Position numbers and translations under genes: made by a program. This document shows, piece by piece, positions 1,075 to 63,428 of a DNA stretch of 64,000 bases; position 1 is the first letter of the stretch, and the number at the start of each line of letters is the position of its first letter. The DNA comes from Miltoncostaea oceani (GTDB lineage Bacteria; Actinomycetota; Thermoleophilia; Miltoncostaeales; Miltoncostaeaceae). The notes beneath the pieces are model-generated. The model had not been told where the DNA came from. It saw only the letters and a list, made by a program, of their open reading frames with translations, and ran no database searches. The DNA is taken from positions 1,240,001-1,304,000 of the forward strand of contig NZ_CP064356.1 of assembly GCF_018141545.1 (NCBI RefSeq), given 5' to 3'.

Positions 1075-2982
1075 ATGAACGTGTTCCTCCCCGACGGCAG
1101 CCGTCTGGAGTTGCCCGAGGGCGCCAGCGGGTACGACGCCGCCGCCGCGATCGGGCCCGGCCTCGCGAAGGCCGCGGTCGCCGTGCGCGTCGGCGACGAC
1201 ATACGCGACCTCGCCCTCCCGCTCCACGAGGGCGACCACCTCCAGATCGTCACGCCGAAGAGCGGCGACGACTACCTCTACGTGATGCGCCACTCGGCGG
1301 CCCACGTCATGGCGGAGGCCGTCCAGACCGTCGTCCCCGGCACGAAGCTCGGCTTCGGCCCGCCGATCGCCGACGGCTTCTACTACGACTTCGACCCGCC
1401 GCGTCCCCTCACCGAGGGCGACTTCGCGGCCATCGAGGCCGAGGTCAACCGGATCCGCAAGGCGAAGGCGCCGTTCCAGCGCAGCGTGATGAGCGTCGCC
1501 GACGCCCACGCCTACTTCTCCGAGCGCGGCGACCCGTACAAGGTCGACCAGGTCGAGGAGCTGACCCGGCAGGGCGAGACCGAGGTCTCCCTCTACCGCC
1601 AGCGCGACTTCGTGGACCTCTGCCGCGGCCCGCACGTCCAGGACACCGGGCGCCTCGGCCCCGTCAAGCTGCTGTCGGTGGCGGGCGCCTACTGGCGCGG
1701 CAGCGAGAAGAACCCGCAGCTCACCCGGGTCTACGCGACGGGGTTCACGTCGAAGGCCGACCTCGACGCCCACCTCGAGCGACTCGAGACGGCGCGGGCC
1801 CGCGACCACCGCCGCGTCGGCCGCGACCTCGACCTGTTCCACTTCGACGACTTCGGCCCCGGGTTCCCGTTCTTCCTGCCGCGCGGCATGACGATCGTCA
1901 ACGCGATCACCGCCGCGGTGCGCGAGGAGCTCGACCGGATGGAGTACGGCGAGATCCAGACGCCGACGATGCTCTCGTCGCAGCTGTGGGACATCAGCGG
2001 CCACAACGAGCACTACCGCGACAACATGTACTTCAGCGAGGTCGACGGGCAGGAGTTCGCGATCAAGCCGATGAACTGCCCGGGCGCCTGCCTGGTGTAC
2101 CGCAGTCGCCGGCACAGCTACCGCGACCTCCCCCTGCGGTACGCCGAGTTCGGGCACGTCCACCGGCACGAGCTGTCGGGCGTGCTGCACGGGCTCTTCC
2201 GGGTGCGGGCGTTCACGCAGGACGACGCGCACGTGTTCTGCCGGCTCGACCAGGTGAAGGACGAGGTCAACGCGATCCTCGACCTGACCGACCGCTTCTA
2301 CGCGCGCTTCGGCTTCGACACGGTCGAGCTGAAGCTGTCGACCCGCCCCGAGAAGGCGACCGGCACCCCCGAGATGTGGGACCAGGCCGAGGCGGCCCTG
2401 CGCGACGCCCTCGGCGACCGCGAGTACGGCCTCAAGGTCGGCGACGGCGCGTTCTACGGGCCGAAGATCGACTTCCAGGTCACGGACACGATGGGCCGGC
2501 CGTGGCAGCTCGGCACCTGCCAGCTCGACTTCAACTTCCCCGAGCGCTTCGACCTCGTCTACACGTCGGCCGACGACACCGAGGAGCGGCCGGTGATGAT
2601 CCACCGGGCGATCACCGGGTCGATCGAGCGCTTCCTCGGGATCCTCATCGAGAACACCGGCGGCGACTTCCCGCTGTGGCTCGCGCCGGAGCAGGCCCGG
2701 GTGCTGCCGATCTCCGACCGCCACGCCGACTACGCGGCGAGCGTGCGCGAGGGCCTGCGCAGCGCCGGCCTGCGGGTCGAGGTCGACGGGCGCTCCGAGT
2801 CGGTCGGCAAGCGGATCCGCGACGGCGAGCTCGCCAAGATCCCCTATCTGCTGGTGGTGGGCGACGCCGAGCAGGAGGCGGGGACGGTGGCGGTCCGCGC
2901 CCGGCGCGGAGGCGACCGCGGCACGCCGACGATCGCCGAGCTCGCCCGCCTCCTCGCCACCGAGGCGGCGGAGGGCGGGTGA
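1075..2982 (+). CDS. thrS: Threonyl-tRNA synthetase
   Basis: Charges tRNA-Thr in the cytoplasm. The 635-residue length is normal for a full bacterial ThrRS. The order is an N-terminal TGS domain (about 1-60), the editing domain with its HxxxH signature (RHSAAHVMAEAVQ, about 65-77) and Cys/His partner site (DLCRGPHV), the class II catalytic core (motif 2 near HRHELSGVLHGLFRVR, motif 3 around ITGSIERFLGILIE), and the anticodon-binding domain after LPISDRHADYA. ATG 1075 gives a standard TGS start (MNVFLPDGS). The small membrane gene that follows overlaps its stop by four bases. Confidence 0.97.
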   Translation: MNVFLPDGSRLELPEGASGYDAAAAIGPGLAKAAVAVRVGDDIRDLALPLHEGDHLQIVTPKSGDDYLYVMRHSAAHVMAEAVQTVVPGTKLGFGPPIADGFYYDFDPPRPLTEGDFAAIEAEVNRIRKAKAPFQRSVMSVADAHAYFSERGDPYKVDQVEELTRQGETEVSLYRQRDFVDLCRGPHVQDTGRLGPVKLLSVAGAYWRGSEKNPQLTRVYATGFTSKADLDAHLERLETARARDHRRVGRDLDLFHFDDFGPGFPFFLPRGMTIVNAITAAVREELDRMEYGEIQTPTMLSSQLWDISGHNEHYRDNMYFSEVDGQEFAIKPMNCPGACLVYRSRRHSYRDLPLRYAEFGHVHRHELSGVLHGLFRVRAFTQDDAHVFCRLDQVKDEVNAILDLTDRFYARFGFDTVELKLSTRPEKATGTPEMWDQAEAALRDALGDREYGLKVGDGAFYGPKIDFQVTDTMGRPWQLGTCQLDFNFPERFDLVYTSADDTEERPVMIHRAITGSIERFLGILIENTGGDFPLWLAPEQARVLPISDRHADYAASVREGLRSAGLRVEVDGRSESVGKRIRDGELAKIPYLLVVGDAEQEAGTVAVRARRGGDRGTPTIAELARLLATEAAEGG

Positions 2983-3350
2983 ACCGGGTCAACTGGGTCG
3001 GCGTCAGGAACTTCCTGATCATCGCCGCCGCGGCGGGGCTGGTGTTCGTGTCGCAGGAGGGCTTCGGCCTGACGACGGGGACGGCGTCGCTGATCATCCA
3101 GGTGCTGTTCCTGGCCGCGATCATCGCGTTCGCCTACAACTACTTCCGGCAGAACGAGCTGGCGTGGCTCGTGCTGAAGCCGTGGCAGCGGTACGTGATC
3201 ATCGCGTGCGCCATCGGCATCGTGCTGCTCCTCCTCGTCGGCTTCCCGTTGCTCGGCGACCGGCTGACGCCGCTCGGCGTGCTGGCGCTGATCGCCGTCC
3301 TGGTGCTGGTCATCGTCTGGGTGATACGCGAGAGCCGCCGCTTCCGCTGA
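2979..3350 (+). CDS. Small multi-pass membrane protein
   Basis: A 123-residue protein whose GTG start overlaps the thrS stop (GTGA), so it is probably co-translated with thrS. Four hydrophobic segments are visible: FLIIAAAAGLVFV, ASLIIQVLFLAAIIAFAY, YVIIACAIGIVLLLLVGFPLL and LGVLALIAVLVLVIVWV. Between the second and third lies a basic loop (RQNELAWLVLKPWQR). The family is not recognised. Coupling to thrS is a positional fact and does not show a shared function. Confidence 0.7.
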   Translation: MNRVNWVGVRNFLIIAAAAGLVFVSQEGFGLTTGTASLIIQVLFLAAIIAFAYNYFRQNELAWLVLKPWQRYVIIACAIGIVLLLLVGFPLLGDRLTPLGVLALIAVLVLVIVWVIRESRRFR

Positions 3351-3437
3351 CCCCGCGCGCCATCCGGCACGCACCCGGCACGATCCCGTGACACCCCGGC
3401 GGTGACCCGTGACGGGCCGCCGCCGCACGATGTCCCC

Positions 3438-3776
3438 GTGCCCCGCCGTCCACCACCCCGCGGCCAGGCGACGGTCGAGCTCGTCGCCCTCCTCCCGGCC
3501 CTCGCCCTGCTGGTCCTCGTCTGCGGCTGGCTCGTGGCGGGTGCGTACGCGTGGAGCCTCGCGGGGGGTGCCGCCCGGGCGGGGGCGCGGGCCGCCGAGG
3601 TGGGCGCGCCGGTCGGGGCCGCGGCGCGCGCCGTCCTGCCCGGGGGTCACGCCCGCCGGGCGCGGGTCACCGTCGACGACGGCGGCCGCCGGGTGCGGGT
3701 GCGCCTCGACGTCCCGCGGCCCCTCCCGTTCCTGCCCGTCGCCCGGGTCACGGGCGAGGCGGAGGTCGCGCGATGA
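3438..3776 (+). CDS. TadE-like pseudopilin
   Basis: A minor pilin-like protein of the Tad/Flp secretion type. The N-terminus has the family pattern: a short basic leader, then GQATVELVALLPALALLVLVCGWLVAG, meaning a Glu at the +5-like position followed by a single long hydrophobic helix, then a small beta-rich extracytoplasmic domain. I prefer GTG 3438, which puts the leader right before the pilin motif; GTG 3402 is an in-frame alternative and neither has a clear ribosome site. It overlaps the next TadE-like gene by four bases. No TadA/B/C machinery is in the window. Confidence 0.75.
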   Translation: MPRRPPPRGQATVELVALLPALALLVLVCGWLVAGAYAWSLAGGAARAGARAAEVGAPVGAAARAVLPGGHARRARVTVDDGGRRVRVRLDVPRPLPFLPVARVTGEAEVAR

Positions 3777-4042
3777 CGCGGCGCCCCCCCCACGGGCAGG
3801 CGGCCGTCGAGCTGATCGCCGCCGTGCCGGTGCTGATCGCGGCGGCCCTCGTCGCCTGGCAGCTCGTCGCGGTGCTGGGGGCGGGGCAGGAGGCCGAGCG
3901 GCGGGTGCGGGCCGACGCCATCCGCGCCGCCGCGTCCCCGGGCGGCACGGCGACGACACGGGCGACGGTCGCCGTCCCGGCGGTCCTGCCCGGCATGGCC
4001 GGGCTGCGGGTCACGGCGCGCGCCACGGTGCGCACGCCGTGA
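3773..4042 (+). CDS. Second TadE-like pseudopilin
   Basis: An 89-residue paralogue of the preceding gene with the same layout: basic leader, HGQAAVELIAAVPVLIAAALVAWQLVAV helix carrying the conserved Glu, then a short C-terminal domain. The ATG at 3773 overlaps the previous stop (ATGA). Its own stop overlaps a GTG at 4039 that would start a third pilin-type gene; that frame is interrupted shortly afterwards. Confidence 0.75.
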   Translation: MTRRPPHGQAAVELIAAVPVLIAAALVAWQLVAVLGAGQEAERRVRADAIRAAASPGGTATTRATVAVPAVLPGMAGLRVTARATVRTP

Positions 4043-4090
4043 GCCGGCGTCACGGACCGATCGGTCAGGCGATGCCGCTCGTCCCGGCCG
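4039..4090 (+). pseudogene. Detached 5' end of the TadG-like gene
   Basis: GTG 4039 overlaps the previous stop (GTGA) and encodes MSRRHGPIGQAMPLV, the typical leader of TadE/TadG-type proteins. The frame then runs into the 3' end of the oppositely oriented YdeI-family gene. The same GQAMPLV coding sequence recurs at 4880-4898, where the rest of the TadG-like gene begins. I infer that this is the original start, separated from its gene by an insertion of about 0.8 kb. Confidence 0.55.
4066..4084 (+). repeat. 19-bp direct repeat, left copy
   Basis: CAGGCGATGCCGCTCGTCC occurs here and again at 4880-4898, in the same orientation and the same coding frame (QAMPLV). The two copies bracket the segment carrying the opposite-strand YdeI-family gene, which looks like an insertion or duplication scar. 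Confidence 0.85.
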
Positions 4091-4648
4091 TCAGTGGGGC
4101 GTCTCGCCGTCCGCGAGCATCCCGACGTACTTCGCGATCCTGCGCGCGCGTGTCTCGGCCGTCCGGGCCGTCTGCACGCGGTGGAGGATCGCGTAGCGGT
4201 TCTGGCCGCCGAGCGCCGAGAACGCGTCGGTGAGGCCCGCCGCCTCGAGCGCCGCGGCGAGGTCATCGGGCACCGTGGAGGTGGCCATGCCGTCGTACGC
4301 GGCCTCCCAGCGGCCGTCGGCCTTGGCCCGTTCGACCTCGGCCAGGCCGGCGGGCCGCATCCGGCCCGCCGCGATCAGCGCCTCGACCTTCCGGCGGTTG
4401 ACCTTCGACCACGTGCTCCGTGGGCGACGCGGCGTGAAGCGCTGCACGAACCAGTCGTCGTCGATGCGCTTCGAGCGCCCGTCGATCCAGCCGAAGCACA
4501 GCGCCACGTCGACCGCGCCGGCCCAGTCGAGCGACGCGACACCGGTGTGCTTCTTGGCCATCCGGACGAGCACCTCGTCGGCGTCGGCGCCGTTGGCCTC
4601 GAGCCAGGCTTCGAACTCGTCGGCGCTCGCGAAGAACTCCCCGTCCAC
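4091..4648 (-). CDS. YdeI/OmpD-associated family protein
   Basis: About 185 residues matching the YdeI-like family (often annotated bacteriocin-protection/OmdA). Recognisable parts are an N-terminal FASADEFEAWLEANGADADEVLVRMAKKHTG, the WAGAVDVALCFGWIDGRSKRID block, and the RRPRSTWSKVNRRKVEALIAAGRM helix, followed by the C-terminal helical domain. GTG 4648 puts the start just before the conserved region. ATG 4783 is an in-frame alternative but its extra sequence looks non-coding. It lies antisense inside a Tad-type cluster between two 19-bp direct repeats, so it is probably an insert. Its biochemical role is not established. Confidence 0.8.
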   Translation of the reverse strand: MDGEFFASADEFEAWLEANGADADEVLVRMAKKHTGVASLDWAGAVDVALCFGWIDGRSKRIDDDWFVQRFTPRRPRSTWSKVNRRKVEALIAAGRMRPAGLAEVERAKADGRWEAAYDGMATSTVPDDLAAALEAAGLTDAFSALGGQNRYAILHRVQTARTAETRARRIAKYVGMLADGETPH

Positions 4649-4879
4649 CCCACGGAGTTCAACGGCCGGGGCGCCCGGTCCTGCCGTCGGCCGCACGGCA
4701 GACGGCACCGTCGCGACGCACTTCTGGCACAGAGCGGCGATGTACCGCGTGCGGCCCGGGGTCACCGTGGGGGAGTGACCCATCCCCGGACAGCCACGGC
4801 ATCCGTCTGCCGAGGACGCGGCACGGTCCGGTCCGTATGTCACCCCGTCTCGGGGCGGAGAGCGCGACCCCAGGCTGGC

Positions 4880-31945: not shown

Positions 31946-33028
31946 ATGGCCTCCATCATCCGGGAGCGTCACCGGCCCCTGAAGCCGTGGCGCGTCGACT
32001 ACTCCGAGCGGGGCAACCGACGGACCCGCCGCTTCGCCACCCGCAAGGAGGCCCAGGCGTTCGCCGGCGACGTTGCGCAGGGCAAACGGCAGTCGAGCGC
32101 GGAGCGGATCACGCTGGAGCGGTGGCTCGGCCAGTGGGTCACGACCCACGGCATCGAGTGGGAGCCCCGGACGCGCCGCGACCGCGGCCGCTACGCCGAC
32201 AACTGGATCGTCCCCGGCCTCGGGAAGATGCTGCTCCGGGACCTGAGCCGCCGGGACATCCGGGCGTGGCGTGCGGAGATGCTCGCCCGCGGCGCGACCC
32301 CCTACGTCGCGAACGCCGCGGTCCGTGTCCTGTCGGCCGCCCTCGGCGACGCCGTCCACGACGAGCTCATCGTCGGGAACCCGTGCCGCGGCCTCGAGCC
32401 CCTGAAGCGCCAGGGTGTGCAGCGCCGGGAGCCGGCGACCCTCGCCGAGGTCGAGGGGATCCGTGCGGTGCTCGAGCGTCCCCGTGACCGGGCGATGGTC
32501 GCCCTCATGGCGTACGCGGGCCTCCGGCCGTCGGAACGTCCGTCGCTGCGGTGGGCTGACGTCCGGGCGGCGACGCTCGTCATCCGCTCGGCCACTGCTT
32601 CCGACGGCCGGGAGAAGGGGACGAAGACCGAGGGCACCCGGACCGTCCCGATCATCCCGGCGCTCGCGGAGGACCTCGAGGCCCTGGAGCGTCGAGACGA
32701 TGGCCTGGTCGTCGGTCCGGTGGACCACGACAACTGGTCGATGCGGGTGTGGCGTCCGGCGCGTGAGCGGGTCGGCTGCACGCGGACGCCGTACAGCCTG
32801 CGCCACACGTTCGCGTCGCTCCTCATCGCGGAGGGCAAGTCGGTCCATGAGGTCGCGCGGCTCCTCGGCCACTCGACACCGGCCCTGACGCTCTCCACCT
32901 ACGGCCACCTCTTCGACGAGGCGCAGCTCGCGGGGGACGAGTCGATGGCGGAGGCCGTCGCTCGTGCACGTCACGAGGCGGCCTCCATGTCGGCGACGAT
33001 GCGGCCGATGGAGCCGGAGGGGCGGTAG
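31946..33028 (+). CDS. int: Tyrosine-type phage integrase
   Basis: A 360-residue site-specific recombinase. It has an AP2-like N-terminal arm-binding region (PWRVDYSERGNRRTRRFATRKEAQAFA), a SAM-like core-binding domain (LERWLGQWVTTHG..), and the catalytic domain: Arg in YAGLRPSERPSLRWADV, H-x-x-R-type YSLRHTFASLLIAEG, LLGHSTPALTLSTYGHL with the Tyr nucleophile. A TATCCT -10-like box sits only 8 bases before ATG, suggesting a very short leader. The 3' end overlaps the excisionase gene by 58 bases on the opposite strand. Confidence 0.95.
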   Translation: MASIIRERHRPLKPWRVDYSERGNRRTRRFATRKEAQAFAGDVAQGKRQSSAERITLERWLGQWVTTHGIEWEPRTRRDRGRYADNWIVPGLGKMLLRDLSRRDIRAWRAEMLARGATPYVANAAVRVLSAALGDAVHDELIVGNPCRGLEPLKRQGVQRREPATLAEVEGIRAVLERPRDRAMVALMAYAGLRPSERPSLRWADVRAATLVIRSATASDGREKGTKTEGTRTVPIIPALAEDLEALERRDDGLVVGPVDHDNWSMRVWRPARERVGCTRTPYSLRHTFASLLIAEGKSVHEVARLLGHSTPALTLSTYGHLFDEAQLAGDESMAEAVARARHEAASMSATMRPMEPEGR

Positions 33029-39246: not shown

Positions 39247-39576
39247 CTACTCCTCGGTGGGCGCGCCCCCCTGGCTCCCGGAGTTCACCGCTCCGGGAAC
39301 GACAGCCAGGGGGGCGTCGTCGTTTGCAGGGGAAACGCTGGTGGCGACGCTGCTGACCGCGTCAGCTGTGGCACCGTCCGGGACATGGACGTAGAGGTCA
39401 TCCAGCGGGACGCCGAGCGCGCGAGCCATCTGGCCCGCCGAGCCGATAGGGGGCTCGGAGCGGCCCGTCTCCCAGCGGTAGACGGTCGCGGGGGAGACGT
39501 TGATCAGCGACGCCAACTTGGCCTGGCTGATCCCGCGCGTCTCACGGGCCTGACGGATGCGCTCTGCCGTGGTCAT
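39247..39576 (-). CDS. XRE-family HTH regulator (Cro-like, leftward)
   Basis: 109 residues. An N-terminal HTH_3 domain (ERIRQARETRGISQAKLASLINVSPATVYRWETGRSEPP) is followed by a short tail. It is the first gene of the leftward early operon, divergent from a second XRE gene, the usual place of a Cro-like regulator. It probably binds the inverted repeat in the intervening 95 bp. Confidence 0.85.
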   Translation of the reverse strand: MTTAERIRQARETRGISQAKLASLINVSPATVYRWETGRSEPPIGSAGQMARALGVPLDDLYVHVPDGATADAVSSVATSVSPANDDAPLAVVPGAVNSGSQGGAPTEE

Positions 39577-39604
39577 GTCCAGCAGGTTGACATATGCAGA
39601 TATA

Positions 39605-39666
39605 CATAGTCAAGACCACAGCGGCACATGCGCCGATTGCGCCTTTGATCGGCACTCTTGACTATG
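39605..39666. promoter_or_regulatory. Operator: perfect 10-bp inverted repeat between divergent XRE genes
   Basis: CATAGTCAAG (39605-39614) and its exact reverse complement CTTGACTATG (39657-39666) lie in the intergenic region. A further TTGACA (39587-39592) pairs with the left copy to form TTGAC..GTCAA arms. The boxes also look like -35 elements, so regulator binding would block both promoters. Confidence 0.65.
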
Positions 39667-39671
39667 CGTCT

Positions 39672-40004
39672 ATGCCGGACCTGGGCTCAGTACTCCGACG
39701 TCGCCGCGAGGAGGCCAAGCTGACGCGGCGCGTGGTCGCGGAGTCCATTGGCGAGACCGAGAACAAGCTGTACCGGTGGGAGACCGGCTTGAACAAGCCG
39801 GAGGCTCTCGCTCTCCTGCGGATGCTCGTGCTCTACGAGAGCTCGCCGGCGGACATCATCGGAGAGGTGGAAGCAGACGCAGAAGGGGCGGCTGCACGAC
39901 CCGACCCCGAGACGGCGACCCAGAAGGCGCGACAGCTCGGAGAGAAGGTCGCTGGTCGTACAGCTGGCCGATCTCGTCCAGGTCGGCGAAGTGCGGGTGG
40001 CTGA
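39672..40004 (+). CDS. XRE-family HTH regulator (repressor-like, rightward)
   Basis: 110 residues from ATG 39672, five bases after the right operator arm. The HTH (LGSVLRRRREEAKLTRRVVAESIGETENKLYRWETGLNKPE) is followed by VLYESSPADIIGEVEADAE and an odd basic tail. An upstream in-frame ATG (39594) would run through the operator and is less likely. It is probably the immunity repressor, but it lacks the C-terminal peptidase domain of LexA/CI-type proteins. Its last 149 bases overlap an opposite-strand gene. Confidence 0.75.
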   Translation: MPDLGSVLRRRREEAKLTRRVVAESIGETENKLYRWETGLNKPEALALLRMLVLYESSPADIIGEVEADAEGAAARPDPETATQKARQLGEKVAGRTAGRSRPGRRSAGG

Positions 40005-40110
40005 CACCTAGCAGCGCCGCGGCGCGGAAGGCTGCTTCCGCCATCAGCTGGTAGGCGACCGTCTCGCGGTGCTCAACGGACAGAGACGCCAGAGGCTCCG
40101 GATCGTGCAC
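39856..40110 (-). CDS. Small protein antisense to the repressor 3' end
   Basis: 84 residues from GTG 40110, preceded by an excellent ribosome site (AAAGGAGGGCGA). The first 55 residues look protein-like (LSVEHRETVAYQLMAEAAFRAAALLGVSHPHFADLDEIGQLYDQ); the rest, which overlaps the repressor gene, is low-complexity. It may influence repressor expression by convergent transcription. No family recognised. Confidence 0.5.
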   Translation of the reverse strand: MHDPEPLASLSVEHRETVAYQLMAEAAFRAAALLGVSHPHFADLDEIGQLYDQRPSLRAVAPSGSPSRGRVVQPPLLRLLPPLR

Positions 40111-40282
40111 TCGCCCTCCTTTCCGGGGGATGGGCGCGGCACGATAGAACACCCGTTCGGACGCATCGGGGCCGGGTCCCCTAGGCCATGCGGAAGACCT
40201 AGAGCGCCCCTTACGCGGTCAGGTGATTCGAGTCCGGGACGCGGGATAGGGTCGCGCCGGCGTCGAGTGAGAGGAGAGGCGA

Positions 40283-40564
40283 GTGGGCCTCCGCGACAAG
40301 TTCACCCAGGGGGCACCGGACCCAGCTGATCTCGTGGCGCCGCCCGCCGGTGGGCAGCCCCGCCGCTTCGAGTACAAGGCGGAGACGATCCGCTCGAAGC
40401 TGATCGGCGACAAGATGGACGGCAGCCAGGTCGAGCAGCTGCTGAACCAGCGAGCCGGTGACGGGTGGCAGCTGCGGTCGATCACCGAGACTGAGGTCAA
40501 AGGAAGGGTCGGTCCCGGCGGCACGATGGGGCTGCTCCTAGTGTTCGAGCGGCCGGTCGCCTGA
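40283..40564 (+). CDS. DUF4177-like protein
   Basis: 93 residues. RRFEYKAETIRSKLIGDKMDGSQVEQLLNQRAGDGWQLRSITETEVKGRVGPGGTMGLLLVFERPV follows the small DUF4177 pattern (aromatic strand, helix ending GWEL/GWQL, then a strand ending in ..VFER). The GTG start follows GAGAGG. It is the first gene of a rightward four-gene accessory unit that leads to the protease gene. Confidence 0.75.
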   Translation: MGLRDKFTQGAPDPADLVAPPAGGQPRRFEYKAETIRSKLIGDKMDGSQVEQLLNQRAGDGWQLRSITETEVKGRVGPGGTMGLLLVFERPVA

Positions 40565-41059
40565 ATGGGGCTGCTCGACCGTCTCCGCCGCCGACCCGAG
40601 CCCGAGCCTCCCAACGTGCTCGACGGCTGGCGGGATCAGGACAGCTGGCTGAAGTCCTGGGAGGCGCCGCGGAACGTCGCGGTTGAGAGCCACCACCAGG
40701 AAGCTCTGACGAGGGCATGCGGGCCCGTCTGCGACGCTGGCTACCTCGTCCCGGTCGAGGTCGAGCTGGGCCCTCGAACTCGGCGGCCCGGATGGAGGGG
40801 TGAACGGGCAAGAGGTCGATATACGGTTAGGACCATCCGAGCGAGGGGGGCCAAGATGGAAACCAGGGACGACGGACGGACCGGACCGACATCGAGAGGG
40901 ACGGAGCCGATGTCACCATCCGACATCCAGAAGGTCTTCGACGTCATGGGTCTCAGCGGCGCCGGTTCGTCCGTGCCGGCCGTGGGCGTGCAGCAGTCGC
41001 GCGGGCCGCTCATGGACTTCCCGATCTCCGGCAGCACGAGCCCGCGCAAGCCGGCGTAG
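40565..41059 (+). CDS. Hypothetical protein, possibly composite
   Basis: An open frame of 164 residues starting right at the DUF4177 stop. The N-terminus (MGLLDRLRRRPEPEPPNVLDGW, then VAVESHHQEALTRACG..GYLVPVEVEL) looks like a lipid-anchor-free HIRAN-domain beginning, but the expected EPDNPxDPNAV part is missing and an Arg-rich stretch follows. The last 49 residues (from ATG 40911, behind GGAG) look like a separate small protein adjoining the protease gene. It may be a decayed gene fused to a small one. Confidence 0.4.
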   Translation: MGLLDRLRRRPEPEPPNVLDGWRDQDSWLKSWEAPRNVAVESHHQEALTRACGPVCDAGYLVPVEVELGPRTRRPGWRGERARGRYTVRTIRARGAKMETRDDGRTGPTSRGTEPMSPSDIQKVFDVMGLSGAGSSVPAVGVQQSRGPLMDFPISGSTSPRKPA

Positions 41060-41983
41060 ATGCCGACCTGGAACCAGCTGCTCGCCGAGGTCCAAAGGGC
41101 AGGGAACGTCCACGATCTCACCCGCCGCAAATACCTCCAGCAGCTCAGCAACCTGACCGGCCGCAACACGATCATCTACTACTCGGCGTGGCTCCAGAAG
41201 GGCCCCATCATGGCCCAGTGGCCCGAGCCATTCCTCGTCAACGACAATGACAAGAACGGCTTTATGGCTGCCATCCACGGCATGGACCGGAGCCGGGGCC
41301 TCGACCTCATCCTGCACACACCGGGGGGCGACGTCGCGGCCGCGGAGTCCCTCGTGGGCTACCTGCGCGCAATGTTCGGACGAGACATCCGCGCGATCGT
41401 CCCTCAGCTCGCGATGTCGGCAGGCACCATGATCGCCTGCGGGTGCAAGGAGATCGTGATGGGGCGCCACTCGAGCCTCGGCCCGATTGACCCTCAGATG
41501 GGCGGTATCGCTGCCCATGGCATCGTCGAGGAGTTCAAGCAGGCGTTCGACGACATCGCAAGGAACCCGGCATCTATCCCCCTGTGGCAGCCGATCATCG
41601 CCAAGTACCACCCGACGCTGATCGGCGAGTGTCAGAAGGCCATCAAGTGGTCGCGAGACATGACCACCGAGTGGCTCAAGACTGGGATGTTCGCTGACGA
41701 CATGCCGAACAACGTCCGCGCGGCGAAGGCCATGAAAGTTGTGGACGAGCTGGCGGATCACGCGCTCACCTTGTCGCACGCTCGCCACATAGACATCGAC
41801 CGGGCGAAGGATCTCGGTTTGAACATCACAACGCTTGAGGACGACGACGATCTGCAGGACGCGGTCCTGACGGTCCATCACCTCACGGTCCAGACGCTGT
41901 CGGACACGGCGTCGGTCAAGATCATCGAGAACGACCAAGGCGTGGCATTCATCCAGTCCGCCGGCCAGGTCATCCAACCGTAG
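41060..41983 (+). CDS. ClpP/SppA-class serine protease (SDH proteinase family)
   Basis: 307 residues resembling serine dehydrogenase proteinases (SDH_protease). The oxyanion/strand region is LDLILHTPGGDVAAAESLVGYLRA, the catalytic Ser120 is in AIVPQLAMSAGTMIACGCKEIVMGRHSSLGPIDPQ, and the C-terminal half is helical. The family contains cytosolic ClpP-like proteases of poorly known substrate. ATG directly follows the previous stop. The surrounding DNA is visibly lower in GC than the phage late genes, consistent with an acquired accessory gene. Confidence 0.85.
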   Translation: MPTWNQLLAEVQRAGNVHDLTRRKYLQQLSNLTGRNTIIYYSAWLQKGPIMAQWPEPFLVNDNDKNGFMAAIHGMDRSRGLDLILHTPGGDVAAAESLVGYLRAMFGRDIRAIVPQLAMSAGTMIACGCKEIVMGRHSSLGPIDPQMGGIAAHGIVEEFKQAFDDIARNPASIPLWQPIIAKYHPTLIGECQKAIKWSRDMTTEWLKTGMFADDMPNNVRAAKAMKVVDELADHALTLSHARHIDIDRAKDLGLNITTLEDDDDLQDAVLTVHHLTVQTLSDTASVKIIENDQGVAFIQSAGQVIQP

Positions 41984-42017
41984 GGAACCTGGTCGTCTGG
42001 CTGGACTGGGCCTGGCC

Positions 42018-42353
42018 GTGACCGTGACGAGAGGTGGCGCGACGACCTGGGAGATAGCAGGGAGGGGGGAACAGATCGAAGTCCCTCCCGGGGAGGATGT
42101 CGGCGCGATTTGGCGGTGGTATCTCCGGACCGCGACGGATCAGGCCTTCGTCGACATACGGATCACGCGGAACGCGCAGCAGGAGTTCGACGACGACGTT
42201 CTTCCTCCCGGTCGCGCCTGGGAGGCGATCCGGGCGGCGGGGCGTCCAGAGGTGGAGCGCCTTCTCGAGCTGAGCAAGCCGCCGCGCTACGTCCACGTCA
42301 GCACGCGCGGCTGTACGACCTCTGAGAGCCGTTCGCCGACCGACCAAGAGTGA
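42018..42353 (+). CDS. Hypothetical protein downstream of the protease
   Basis: 111 residues (GGATTWEIAGRGEQIEVPPGEDVGAIWRWYLRTATDQAFVDIRITR...) from GTG 42018, 34 bases after the protease. It reads like a compact alpha/beta protein. No family recognised. It probably belongs to the same transcript as the protease. Confidence 0.5.
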   Translation: MTVTRGGATTWEIAGRGEQIEVPPGEDVGAIWRWYLRTATDQAFVDIRITRNAQQEFDDDVLPPGRAWEAIRAAGRPEVERLLELSKPPRYVHVSTRGCTTSESRSPTDQE

Positions 42354-42397
42354 CCCGCTGCGGACCGCAGCGGGATGAGCGAGTTGCGCCCGGGTCG

Positions 42398-42658
42398 CTA
42401 CCCCGGCAGGCGCAGCGCCGGAGACTCGACACGCAGCGTGAACCGCTCGCCCGGCAGCACCTCGGGGTCGTTGGTGTAGCCGGCGGCCTCGGTCAGCCCG
42501 CGCGCCCCGATGACGGTGAAGCGGCGGGGCACGCACCAGCTGGCGGCGGCCAGCCGGTGAGCGACGTCCCAGCCGAGGAAGGGGACGCGCCAGAGCTCGG
42601 CGCCGGCGGAGCGCCCGCCGTCTTCCTCGAGGTCTCCGGTGACGATGAGCGTCCCCAC
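42398..42658 (-). CDS. Hypothetical protein, paralogue A
   Basis: 86 residues: GTLIVTGDLEEDGG..GAELWRVPFLGWDVAHRL..WCVPRRFTVIG..VLPGERFTLRVES. It aligns along its whole length with the next gene upstream (42674-42964), sharing GDLE, ELWR, FLGW, WCVPRR and the LPGE/VPGE turn. It probably has a small beta-barrel fold. GTG start. Function unknown. Confidence 0.65.
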   Translation of the reverse strand: MGTLIVTGDLEEDGGRSAGAELWRVPFLGWDVAHRLAAASWCVPRRFTVIGARGLTEAAGYTNDPEVLPGERFTLRVESPALRLPG

Positions 42659-45449: not shown

Positions 45450-46190
45450 TCAGCCTCCGGTTCGTTTGAGGATCTCCCGCGCGACGGCGGGGAGCTTGTC
45501 GTGCTGGTCGAAGCGGCCGCCGCGCCACGTGAGCACGGTCCCGGGCTTCGCCGTCTTGCGGCGAGCGAGCCACCGGAGCGGTCCGAGCGCGGGCCCGTCG
45601 AAGCCGCCCGCCTCGGGCTTCGTCCACCCGCCGTAGGTCTTGCCGTTCGGGAGGGCGAGCCGCAGCGACCGGCCGTGGGGCCGGACCTTCGGCGCCGGAG
45701 GGGTGGGCGCGACGTTGAGGAACCTCCGGACTTGCTGGAGGTAGAAGTCGATCGGGAAGCCGGGGCCTGGGTCCCAGTGGTCGTTGCCGGGGAGCCCGGC
45801 GTGGGTGTGGTAGCCGCGGCTCGTGCCCTCCTGGAGGGGGATGCTGTAGACGCGGCACCAGCCGGCGTGGATCCGGGCGGCCTCGACGAGGCGCGGCTGG
45901 TGAGCCATCCACTCCTCCCGGGTCCACCTGGCGAAGCCGGCGATCTCCAGGCCGAGGCCGTTGGTGTTCGCGCCGCGGGCGTGCCAGGCGATCGCCATGT
46001 CGTCGACGCAGCGCCACACCTCGACATCGTCGACGACGACGTGAGCGGAGCCGCCGCTGCGGGGGTTCGCGAACCAGCGGGCCGCGCCCTCGGCGGTGCT
46101 CCCCTCGGTGCAGTGGATGACGACGAGCGTCGGCGGGGCAGGGCGGCGGCCGGACGTGTGCACGGCCGGGAGGGTGCGCCAGGTGTGCAT
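45450..46190 (-). CDS. N-acetylmuramoyl-L-alanine amidase endolysin
   Basis: 246 residues. The Amidase_2 (PGRP-like) domain fills the first 165 residues: zinc ligand His26 in LVVIHCTEGST, SAHVVVDDVEVWRCVDD, IAWHARGANTNGLGLEIAG, and the second ligand pair in YHTHAGLPGNDHWDPGPGFPID. A C-terminal region with a GKTYGGWTKPEAGGFDGP-type motif may bind the wall. There is no signal peptide, so release needs a holin; two holin-like genes flank it. Confidence 0.92.
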   Translation of the reverse strand: MHTWRTLPAVHTSGRRPAPPTLVVIHCTEGSTAEGAARWFANPRSGGSAHVVVDDVEVWRCVDDMAIAWHARGANTNGLGLEIAGFARWTREEWMAHQPRLVEAARIHAGWCRVYSIPLQEGTSRGYHTHAGLPGNDHWDPGPGFPIDFYLQQVRRFLNVAPTPPAPKVRPHGRSLRLALPNGKTYGGWTKPEAGGFDGPALGPLRWLARRKTAKPGTVLTWRGGRFDQHDKLPAVAREILKRTGG

Positions 46191-46525
46191 CAACGTGCGT
46201 CTCCTCTGGGGATGATCGGGCCGCAGCTGCGGCCGATGTCGCGGGCGAGGGTGGTGGAGGCGTCGAGCAGGACGGTGAGCTGGCGGTAGCTCTCCTGGTC
46301 CGTCGAGACCTCCTCGGGGGTCCCAATCCGCTGCTCGAAGCGGGCGCGCGCCCCGTCGAAGTAGTCGACGATCTCGCCGTTCCATGTGGCGACGGCGCAG
46401 GCGACGTCGCGGGTGGTCTGCTCCTGGCCGCGGTCGCGGAGGGTGCCGAAGAGGAAGACGCCGGCGACGAGGGCGAGGGCGACGACGCCGGCGACGCGGA
46501 GGAGGCGGTCGAAGGTGGTCAGCAC
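46190..46525 (-). CDS. Small membrane protein, lysis cassette (paralogue 1)
   Basis: 111 residues with an N-terminal membrane helix (FDRLLRVAGVVALALVAGVFLFGTL), then an extracytoplasmic helical part (RDVACAVATWNGEIVDYFDGARARFEQRIGTPEE). It shares DRLLRVA, a single helix and a cysteine soon after it with the next gene upstream, suggesting duplication. A spanin-like role is possible but unproven. GTG 46525 overlaps the upstream stop. Confidence 0.6.
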   Translation of the reverse strand: MLTTFDRLLRVAGVVALALVAGVFLFGTLRDRGQEQTTRDVACAVATWNGEIVDYFDGARARFEQRIGTPEEVSTDQESYRQLTVLLDASTTLARDIGRSCGPIIPRGDAR

Positions 46526-62354: not shown

Positions 62355-63428
62355 TTACGGAAGGCGCCGGAGCGCCAGGTGGTAGTCGAGGTCCCTCTCG
62401 AGTCCCTCGCCGTCCTGCTGGTCCTGCGGGTTCTGCTCGTCCGCCGGCGCGGCGGCCGGGTCGGGGTCGGAGTCGGGGTTGGCCAGAGGCGCGACGAGCT
62501 GCGCCTCGACGGTCGGGTCGTCGACGCCGTCGGCGGCGGCGCCCCCACCTCGGCGGCGAGGTCCGCCGCTCCGCGCGAGCCGCGCGAGCGTCGCCTCGAA
62601 GCTCTCGGTGCGGTCCGCCATCCCGTCGGTGACGGCGTGGCGGCCGAAGACGACGCGGCCCTCGCCGAACCCGCCGCGGACGGCCTGGCGGTCGACGCCC
62701 CGGCCCTTCGCGACGTCGGCGACGAACTGGCCGTAAAAGTCGTCGACCAGCGCCTGGATCGACGCCCGGGCCTCCTCGGTGAGGGGCTCGAAGGGGTTGC
62801 CCTCGGTCTTGAACCGGCCGGCGGAGATCAGGGTGGTGTGCACACCCTGCTGCTCCCACTTGCCGCTCTCGTCCTCGTGGGCGGAGAGGACGCCGATCGA
62901 GCCGACCGCGCCGCTCGGGCTGACGATGATCTCGTCGGCCTGCGACGCGAGCCAGTAGGCGGCGCTCGCCGCCATGGTGTTCGCGTGCGCGATGACCGGC
63001 TTCGACGCCCGCGCGGCGCGGATCTTCGCGGCGGTCTCCGGGACGAGCGACACGCTCCCGCCCGGCGAGTTGATGTCGAGGAGGATCGTCGAGACGGCGG
63101 GGTCCGCCGCCGCGGCGTCGAGCGCCCCGCCGAGCTTCTGGAGGGACGTGCCCCCCGAGATCTCGGTCATGAGGTTCGCCCGCGGGACGATCACGCCGTA
63201 GATCGGGAGGACGGCGATCCCACCGCCCACCTCGTACGGATCCCGCGAGCCGGGGCCGGCGGCGATCCGGTCGGCGACCTGGTCGTCGCTCAGGCGCACA
63301 CCGGCGAGGCGCAGCTCGAGGACCTCGCAGATCGCGGCGAACGCGGCCGGCTCGATCGCCCACGGGGTCGTGGCGACCGCGGCGAGCACCCGGTTGTAGG
63401 CACGCCGCGACGGGTCAGGCGTGGGCAT
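62355..63428 (-). CDS. S49-family capsid maturation protease
   Basis: 357 residues, SppA-like. VLPIYGVIVPRANL, LLDINSPGGSVSLV, the nucleophile Ser155 in ANTMAASAAYWLASQADEI, SGAVGSIGVL, and Lys207 in ISAGRFKTEGNPFEPLTEEA complete the Ser/Lys dyad. A C-terminal acidic/Pro-rich tail (PDSDPDPAAAPADEQNPQDQQDG) may be the scaffold part. It overlaps the portal gene by 14 bases. Confidence 0.93.
   Translation of the reverse strand: MPTPDPSRRAYNRVLAAVATTPWAIEPAAFAAICEVLELRLAGVRLSDDQVADRIAAGPGSRDPYEVGGGIAVLPIYGVIVPRANLMTEISGGTSLQKLGGALDAAAADPAVSTILLDINSPGGSVSLVPETAAKIRAARASKPVIAHANTMAASAAYWLASQADEIIVSPSGAVGSIGVLSAHEDESGKWEQQGVHTTLISAGRFKTEGNPFEPLTEEARASIQALVDDFYGQFVADVAKGRGVDRQAVRGGFGEGRVVFGRHAVTDGMADRTESFEATLARLARSGGPRRRGGGAAADGVDDPTVEAQLVAPLANPDSDPDPAAAPADEQNPQDQQDGEGLERDLDYHLALRRLP

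What the first reader, a model, noticed from the sequence alone, without database searches (positions are those of the whole stretch)
40283..42353. Lysogen-expressed unit around a ClpP/SppA-class protease
A rightward unit (DUF4177-like, HIRAN-like/composite frame, SDH-type protease with Ser120, unknown protein) lies next to the repressor, in lower-GC DNA. This is the usual location of prophage genes expressed in the lysogen, including superinfection exclusion and defence genes. The combination is not one I recognise.
Basis: inference. Interest (0 to 1): 0.55.

Follow-up and report, generated by a model that had tools for sequence, protein, structure and literature searches.

The report
Two-gene protease cassette carried by prophages
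Inside a prophage there is a pair of genes, a very small protein and a ClpP-like protease, that travel together across phages, bacteria and archaea and look like a defence cassette, although what they do has not been tested.

Summary
Two genes do form a conserved pair: the protease (41060-41983, PF01972/phrog_11747) and a small gene directly before it. Of 71 non-redundant subfamily proteases (window included), 67 have the small ORF by script, two (window, L080) inside a longer frame, two just outside the scanned range by eye. The small proteins are mostly unalignable between lineages, but share an N-terminal motif far above shuffles, and 20 of 22 computable dN/dS values are 0.04-0.24. The pair is in 77 of 5426 complete E. 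coli genomes; the two opened are prophages with it between lysis and terminase genes and no annotated small gene. In host genomes, four of 19 loci have restriction-modification genes within 3 kb, more than density predicts, though the families were chosen post hoc. Best reading: a defence-type protease with a co-encoded regulator or substrate. The pairing is well supported; the function is inferred.

The parts
40856..41059 (+). Small partner gene (67 aa from ATG 40856, or 49 aa from ATG 40910). N-terminal motif DIQKVFDVMGL, C-terminal FPISGSTS. Its stop TAG directly abuts the protease ATG.
   Evidence: Synteny and motif in relatives. The 67-aa start has a GAGGGGGG stretch 5 bases upstream and parallels the N-terminal extension of the closest relative L017. 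The 49-aa form has no Pfam, PHROG or NCBIfam match at E<=1.
41060..41983 (+). SDH-type ClpP-fold serine protease, 307 aa, Ser120 as presumed nucleophile
   Evidence: PF01972 E 1.2e-21; phrog_11747 E 2.1e-94, residues 19-300; S120, D144, H240, H274, K287 in 85 of 85; AlphaFold2 of the fusion pLDDT 89, ClpP Z 13.6
40283..40564 (+). DUF4177 protein, a neighbour, not part of the conserved pair
   Evidence: PF13783 E 1.4e-13; no convincing match in the other 163 loci
40565..40774 (+).
42018..42353 (+). 111-aa ORF without any family match, not part of the conserved pair
39594..40004 (+). Helix-turn-helix protein upstream of the unit
   Evidence: HTH_31 E 9.1e-11
39247..39576 (-). Helix-turn-helix (repressor-like) protein, divergent
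   Evidence: HTH_3 E 1.4e-16

Best explanation
A two-gene cargo cassette: a fast-evolving small protein (mostly 54-73 aa: a predicted N-terminal helix, a poorly ordered rest and a C-terminal strand-like S/T-rich motif), followed by an SDH-type ClpP-fold serine protease without recognised membrane or secretion signals (by eye). In 59 of 69 subfamily loci scored the small gene ends within 35 nt of the protease start, overlapping it in 28. I think it most likely acts as a phage-defence or superinfection-immunity module. The protease would be the effector and the small protein its dedicated regulator (inhibitor, sensor, or cleaved activator). SHOWN: the pair, the conserved motifs, selection on the small gene, the predicted protease fold and conserved serine, prophage cargo positions, restriction-modification neighbours at some loci. 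INFERRED: proteolytic activity, that the two proteins interact, that the small protein restrains the protease, and that the output is defence.
For: Pair: of 71 proteases (window included; at least 45% identity, non-redundant at 95%, at least 230 nt upstream), 67 have an upstream ORF of 40-125 aa by script. The window and L080 have longer ORFs that contain it. L053 and L134 have it just outside the scanned range, read by eye. Spacing. Motif: 52 small proteins sharing at most 35% identity give N-terminal [ED]Ix[EKD]h[FY]xxLGL, log-likelihood 327 against 164±3.8 in 12 shuffled sets, and a C-terminal motif, 178 against 136±4.1 in 15 shuffled sets; shuffled sets had half as many random starts as the real set. 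Leave-one-out, 47 of 71 module loci score at least 8 bits against 1 of 179 control ORFs. Selection: of 35 pairs, dN/dS could be computed in 22; 20 lie at 0.04-0.24. Co-inheritance: Spearman 0.40, Mantel p 0.001, 70 loci. Cargo positions: integrase or lysis/antiterminator Q neighbours; two E. coli prophages with it between Rz-like gene and terminase. Host loci: C5-methylase+Vsr+GmrSD (L008), N6-methylase+DpnII (L013), REase_II+methylase (L015), EcoRI methylase+GmrSD+TIR NTPase (L020), SIR2_2 (L017). Three families give 93 matches in about 47.1 Mb of 16 of these genomes, so about 0.19 expected within 3 kb of 16 modules; 5 seen, at 4 loci.
Against: No phenotype or activity is known. PADLOC has no model for either gene. 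The AlphaFold fusions do not dock the small protein's C-terminal motif (pLDDT below 50). The three families were chosen after seeing the neighbours; of 19 host loci only five had neighbours scanned against libraries, and I saw nothing defence-like by eye at the other 14. In some phages the gene lies among or beside virion genes (Porphyromonas, Gordonia), which suits a lysogen-expressed defence gene less well. Two dN/dS values, including the window against L017, are 0.45 and 0.55, and synonymous sites are near saturation in many pairs.
Confidence: 0.4

Rival explanations
1. Counter-defence or host-takeover protease: the phage uses the small protein as an adaptor to send host restriction or other defence proteins to the protease, and host copies beside restriction genes are captured phage genes or control the restriction enzyme.
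For: Found in phages near lysis and terminase genes, beside type II restriction operons in some hosts, and the small protein evolves faster than the enzyme.
Against: Counter-defence genes would be expected among early genes rather than at attachment or lysis edges (inference). No unfoldase is among the neighbour families listed, but those lists are capped at 25 families.
Confidence: 0.2
2. Lysogeny switch: the protease cleaves a phage regulator on a signal (as in ImmA/ImmR, recalled), with the small protein as sensor or substrate.
For: In the window it lies beside two HTH genes; small upstream partner; prophage setting.
Against: The window's upstream HTH gene finds no convincing counterpart in 163 loci (best E 0.037); no repressor family is among those listed for the neighbours of 37 viral loci (capped lists); the pair also occurs on contigs binned as archaea, Omnitrophota and CPR.
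Confidence: 0.15
3. The small protein is simply the natural substrate or assembly partner of a protease with a maintenance role, as 1510-N cleaves the stomatin of its operon.
For: 1510-N/PH1510 is the only sequence relative in the PDB at E<=0.001 (best E 3.2e-05), superposes with Z 13.4, and cleaves its operon partner's C-terminal stretch (passages of PMC3795559).
Against: Patchy distribution (17 of 396 genomes of the phylum at E<=1e-30, own included) argues against maintenance; the small protein has no resemblance to stomatin in length or in any family search.
Confidence: 0.15
4. Head maturation protease with a scaffold-like small protein.
For: Weak similarity to phrog_53 head maturation protease (E 5.8e-10); virion-gene neighbourhood in two phages.
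Against: The window prophage and the two E. coli prophages opened carry a separate head protease; several host contigs show no phage-like neighbours by eye.
Confidence: 0.04

Closest known systems
SDH_protease family PF01972 / PHROG phrog_11747 / NCBIfam NF047768
   Same: The protease belongs to PF01972 above the gathering score and matches phrog_11747 over nearly its full length; RefSeq names E. coli copies after the SDH family.
   Different: PHROG gives no function; the listings I saw mention no small partner. The window protein scores 91.9 against NF047768's cut-off of 250.
1510-N (NfeD/STOPP) stomatin-specific protease
   Same: ClpP/SppA fold (Z 13.4), aligned catalytic serine, acts on its operon partner.
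   Different: Membrane-anchored with a large stomatin partner and a Ser-Lys dyad. Here the partner has mostly 54-73 aa and the catalytic base is unresolved.
Toxin-antitoxin pairs with a small upstream antitoxin (recalled)
   Same: Small, fast-evolving upstream gene, coupled to a conserved enzyme on mobile elements.
   Different: Toxicity and neutralisation are untested; a ClpP-fold protease as toxin of such a pair is not one I know (recalled).
SppA signal peptide peptidase, ClpP
   Same: Fold: Foldseek best 4kwb SppA E 1e-4; ClpP Z 13.6 over 172 residues.
   Different: An invariant Asp144 stands 24 residues after Ser120, where by my recall ClpP has its histidine; no Clp ATPase in the cassette.

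Membership tests
SDH_protease PF01972 | Pfam gathering score | tested here: met
   77.5 bits against 31.3
phrog_11747 | near full-length profile match | tested here: met
   E 2.1e-94, residues 19-300 on profile 5-287 of 290
NCBIfam NF047768 Clp_like_SDH (equivalog) | curated cut-off 250 bits | tested here: not met
   91.9 bits; a relative outside the equivalog
ClpP (peptidase S14) | Ser-His-Asp triad with His about 24 residues after Ser | tested here: inconclusive
   Asp144 at that spacing in 85 of 85; the ClpP spacing is recalled, and no residue-level superposition was available
Ser-Lys proteases (SppA, 1510-N) | catalytic lysine | tested here: inconclusive
   K287 in 85 of 85, K182 in 72 of 85, H240 in 85 of 85; geometry not readable from the model output
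Known defence systems (PADLOC-DB 2.0.0) | model match of either gene | tested here: not met
   no match at E<=1 for the protease or for the 164-aa ORF that contains the small protein
Toxin-antitoxin system | toxicity of the enzyme neutralised by the partner | not testable with these tools
   gene order and spacing only
HIRAN domain (reader) | Pfam match | tested here: not met
   none at E<=1 for the 70-aa stretch or the 164-aa ORF
Phage head maturation protease | best family match and sole head protease of the phage | tested here: not met
   separate phrog_53 protease at 62355-63428, E 2.8e-99; this protein matches phrog_53 only at E 5.8e-10

The most novel reading that the evidence does not exclude
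A previously undescribed phage-borne and host-borne immune system in which a hypervariable micro-protein holds or triggers a ClpP-fold protease. It would serve prophages as superinfection immunity and hosts as a back-up behind type II restriction, spread across bacteria and archaea, with the small gene left out of current annotation in at least some genomes.
Probability: 0.35. Interest if true: 0.85.

Novelty: new variant of a known kind. Interest (0 to 1): 0.6.

Why it matters
The protease is filed as a lone 'SDH' enzyme of unknown role. Recognising a constant small partner turns it into a testable two-component system. It occurs in prophages of E. coli, so laboratory tests are easy. If it is defence, it adds a ClpP-fold protease effector to phage immunity and explains a recurrent cargo gene of prophages. 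It also shows a conserved micro-gene that annotation missed in the two E. coli records opened.

Tried and rejected
Four-gene conservation: rejected. tblastn of DUF4177, the N-terminal part of the 164-aa ORF and ORF4 against 163 loci gave no convincing match; the best was ORF2N against L167, E 6e-4 over 34 aa, a locus that had been fetched with that very query. HIRAN: no support. Pairwise tblastn of the window's 49-aa small protein against the same loci: nothing better than E 0.2; only synteny and the motif reveal it.

Docking of the small protein's C-terminal motif into the active site: AlphaFold2 of two fusions left it disordered. The idea is not supported; a monomer is a weak test. Mixed alignment A4 (small-only rows) misaligned and was dropped for A5. 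Promoter and terminator scan of window 39900-42500: none found, uninformative at this GC.

Motif caveats: starts of small ORFs were chosen by a rule of mine, which set 78 of 99 non-redundant loci; the window and L004 were then set by hand. Seven (L024, L025, L029, L086, L140-L142) were dropped before the EM, leaving 71, of which 52 share at most 35% identity. The real set had 60 and 120 random starts, the shuffled sets 30 and 60, which favours the real set slightly. The matrix was built from 35 of the 52 sites, picked for high scores, and leaving one out still keeps its cousins. The 71 loci are another set: all subfamily proteases with enough upstream DNA. The window counts as a miss there because its frame is 164 aa, and 24 of the 71 stayed below 8 bits or unscored. 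An ORF alone means little: 179 of 415 control genes also have one, and 87 of 93 loci include distant SDH genes whose upstream ORF looks unrelated. Contigs are mostly MAGs, so host names may be wrong.

Papers: no paper on this protease was found (search listings; open PMC library only). PMC8541194 and PMC3795559 were seen as passages. ImmA/ImmR, the ClpP His spacing and toxin-antitoxin generalities are recalled.

Full report
What is in the window. DUF4177 (PF13783) and the SDH-type protease (PF01972) are confirmed. The protease also matches phrog_11747 over nearly its full length (E 2.1e-94), a phage family of unknown function. The region is a prophage: integrase at 31946-33025, endolysin at 45450-46385, and tape measure, head protein and a separate head protease between 54952 and 63428. 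The kilobase with most of the protease has the lowest GC of the window, 0.634.

The four-gene unit does not recur. DUF4177, the N-terminal part of ORF2 and ORF4 have no convincing counterpart in the 163 other loci (1.4 Mb) fetched up to that point, nearly all of which hold relatives of the protease. DUF4177 matched 1 of 50,697 phage records at E<=0.01. ORF4 matched 1 of 61 genomes, the own one.

What does recur. Relatives of the protease of 48-68% identity come from contigs binned as Bacillota, Prevotella, Acidobacteria, Omnitrophota, CPR, Solirubrobacteraceae, Pseudomonas and several archaea (19 loci). Others come from IMG/VR contigs (237 confirmed among 240 stretches, 80 kept), from 7 of 50,697 phage records and from 37 of 72,556 plasmid records, 4 of them over at least 80% of the protein. 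Directly upstream there is nearly always a short ORF. After removing redundancy at 95% protease identity, 71 proteases of at least 45% identity with at least 230 nt upstream remain, window included. Of these, 67 have a 40-125 aa ORF ending between 70 nt before and 45 nt after the protease start. The window and L080 have it inside a longer frame. L053 ends about 50 nt inside the protease and L134 about 115 nt before it (by eye). In 59 of 69 scored subfamily loci the end lies within 35 nt of the protease start, and 28 overlap it. In the window this is the tail of ORF2: start ATG 40856 (67 aa) or 40910 (49 aa), stop TAG at 41057-41059, with the protease ATG at 41060.

The small ORF is a gene. An ORF upstream is no evidence by itself: 179 of 415 control genes have one. 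But 52 small proteins, none more than 35% identical to another, share [ED]Ix[EKD]h[FY]xxLGL near the N-terminus, with a log-likelihood of 327 against 164±3.8 (maximum 171) in 12 shuffled sets. The part after residue 22 shares a weaker hx[VI]xx[ST][GTDN][SN]T motif, 178 against 136±4.1 (maximum 146) in 15 shuffled sets. A leave-one-out matrix finds the first motif at 8 bits or more in 47 of 71 module loci and in 1 of 179 control ORFs. Among 35 pairs of relatives dN/dS of the small gene could be computed in 22; 20 lie at 0.04-0.24, two at 0.45 and 0.55 (the latter the window against L017, poorly alignable). The protease was more constrained wherever both values exist. Small and large genes are inherited together (Spearman 0.40, Mantel p 0.001, 70 loci). 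Several small proteins, such as those of L018, L022, L046, L050, L094 and L097, score below 8 bits and may be a second type.

Where the pair sits. In 37 viral loci with enough flank, 142 nearest long ORFs include 8 integrases, at least 4 endolysins, 3 antiterminators Q and 3 N6/N4 methylases (family lists capped at 25, ORFs not gene calls). In E. coli, 80 of 5426 complete genomes have a blastn match, 77 over at least 80% of the pair. The two records I opened show it between the Rz-like gene and the terminase genes. Both hold the 66-aa small ORF, and the RefSeq table lists no CDS there in either. In L156 it has a ribosome-binding site (aaaaggagctatcattatg), and the protease is followed by a hairpin-plus-T stretch (by eye). 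In host genomes, four loci carry restriction-modification genes within 3 kb: C5 methylase, Vsr and GmrSD in L008; N6 methylase and DpnII in L013, DpnII ending 8 nt before the small gene; restriction enzyme and methylase in L015; in L020 an EcoRI-type methylase whose longest ORF starts 2 nt after the protease, then GmrSD and a TIR NTPase. A fifth, L017, the closest relative of the window protease (68%), has a SIR2-like gene downstream. I chose these neighbours for scanning by eye. The other 14 of 19 loci showed nothing defence-like by eye and were not scanned. In 16 of these genomes three of the families have 93 matches in about 47.1 Mb, so about 0.19 are expected within 3 kb of 16 modules against 5 seen at 4 loci. 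The families were chosen after the neighbours were seen, so this is a guide, not a test.

The enzyme. Ser120, Asp144, His240, His274 and Lys287 are invariant in 85 sequences; Lys182 is in 72. Ser120 aligns with the serine of 1510-N (Ser97). AlphaFold2 of small protein plus protease gave pLDDT 89 and pTM 0.83; the fold is that of ClpP, SppA and 1510-N. The small protein's first ten residues, which hold its helix, have a mean pLDDT of 86; most of the rest is poorly ordered. In a second fusion (L122) the small protein was less confident still, about 69 for its helices and below 50 for its tail. No coordinates were available, so neither contacts nor catalytic geometry could be read.

How it may work. 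The order (small gene first, close to or overlapping the enzyme), the fast evolution of the small protein, cargo positions in prophages and restriction neighbours in some hosts fit a defence-type protease controlled by its partner. The rivals are counter-defence, a lysogeny switch, a substrate pair as in 1510-N/stomatin, and, least likely, head maturation. I put the defence reading at 0.4 and the existence of the two-gene module above 0.9.

What is known. The protease family is known, without a stated function in PHROGs. The wider family also rings in 3 of 14 control genomes (T. maritima, C. glutamicum, M. jannaschii). The pair is not in PADLOC-DB 2.0.0, and open-access full-text searches found no paper on it. 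One small-protein lineage is phrog_25714, function unknown. I therefore call it a new variant of a known kind: a known enzyme family in a new two-gene setting.

Noticed in passing
G000:C1:633482-634418 (L002, L003): The own genome holds a second, diverged SDH protease split over two frames, with a 63-aa stretch of another type just upstream.
   Followed up: partly
L156 9006-9206 and L157 from 7006 (E. coli prophages): The RefSeq table lists no CDS for the conserved 66-aa small gene in front of the annotated SDH protease.
   Followed up: partly
L028, L031, L037: More distant SDH proteases of the same class follow a membrane protein that looks like a rhomboid (by eye), a different partner from the small gene.
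   Followed up: no
L159 (G155:C50) 1513-4734: Next to the pair lies a large protein that looks like a GHKL ATPase of sacsin type (by eye), possibly a further defence locus.
   Followed up: no
viral loci of alignment A6: Three of 142 nearest neighbour ORFs match MutS domains I to V, unusual beside a phage cargo gene.
   Followed up: no
L018, L022, L046, L050, L094, L097: Small partners that score below 8 bits for the N-terminal motif, perhaps a second type; whether they are homologous is open.
   Followed up: partly
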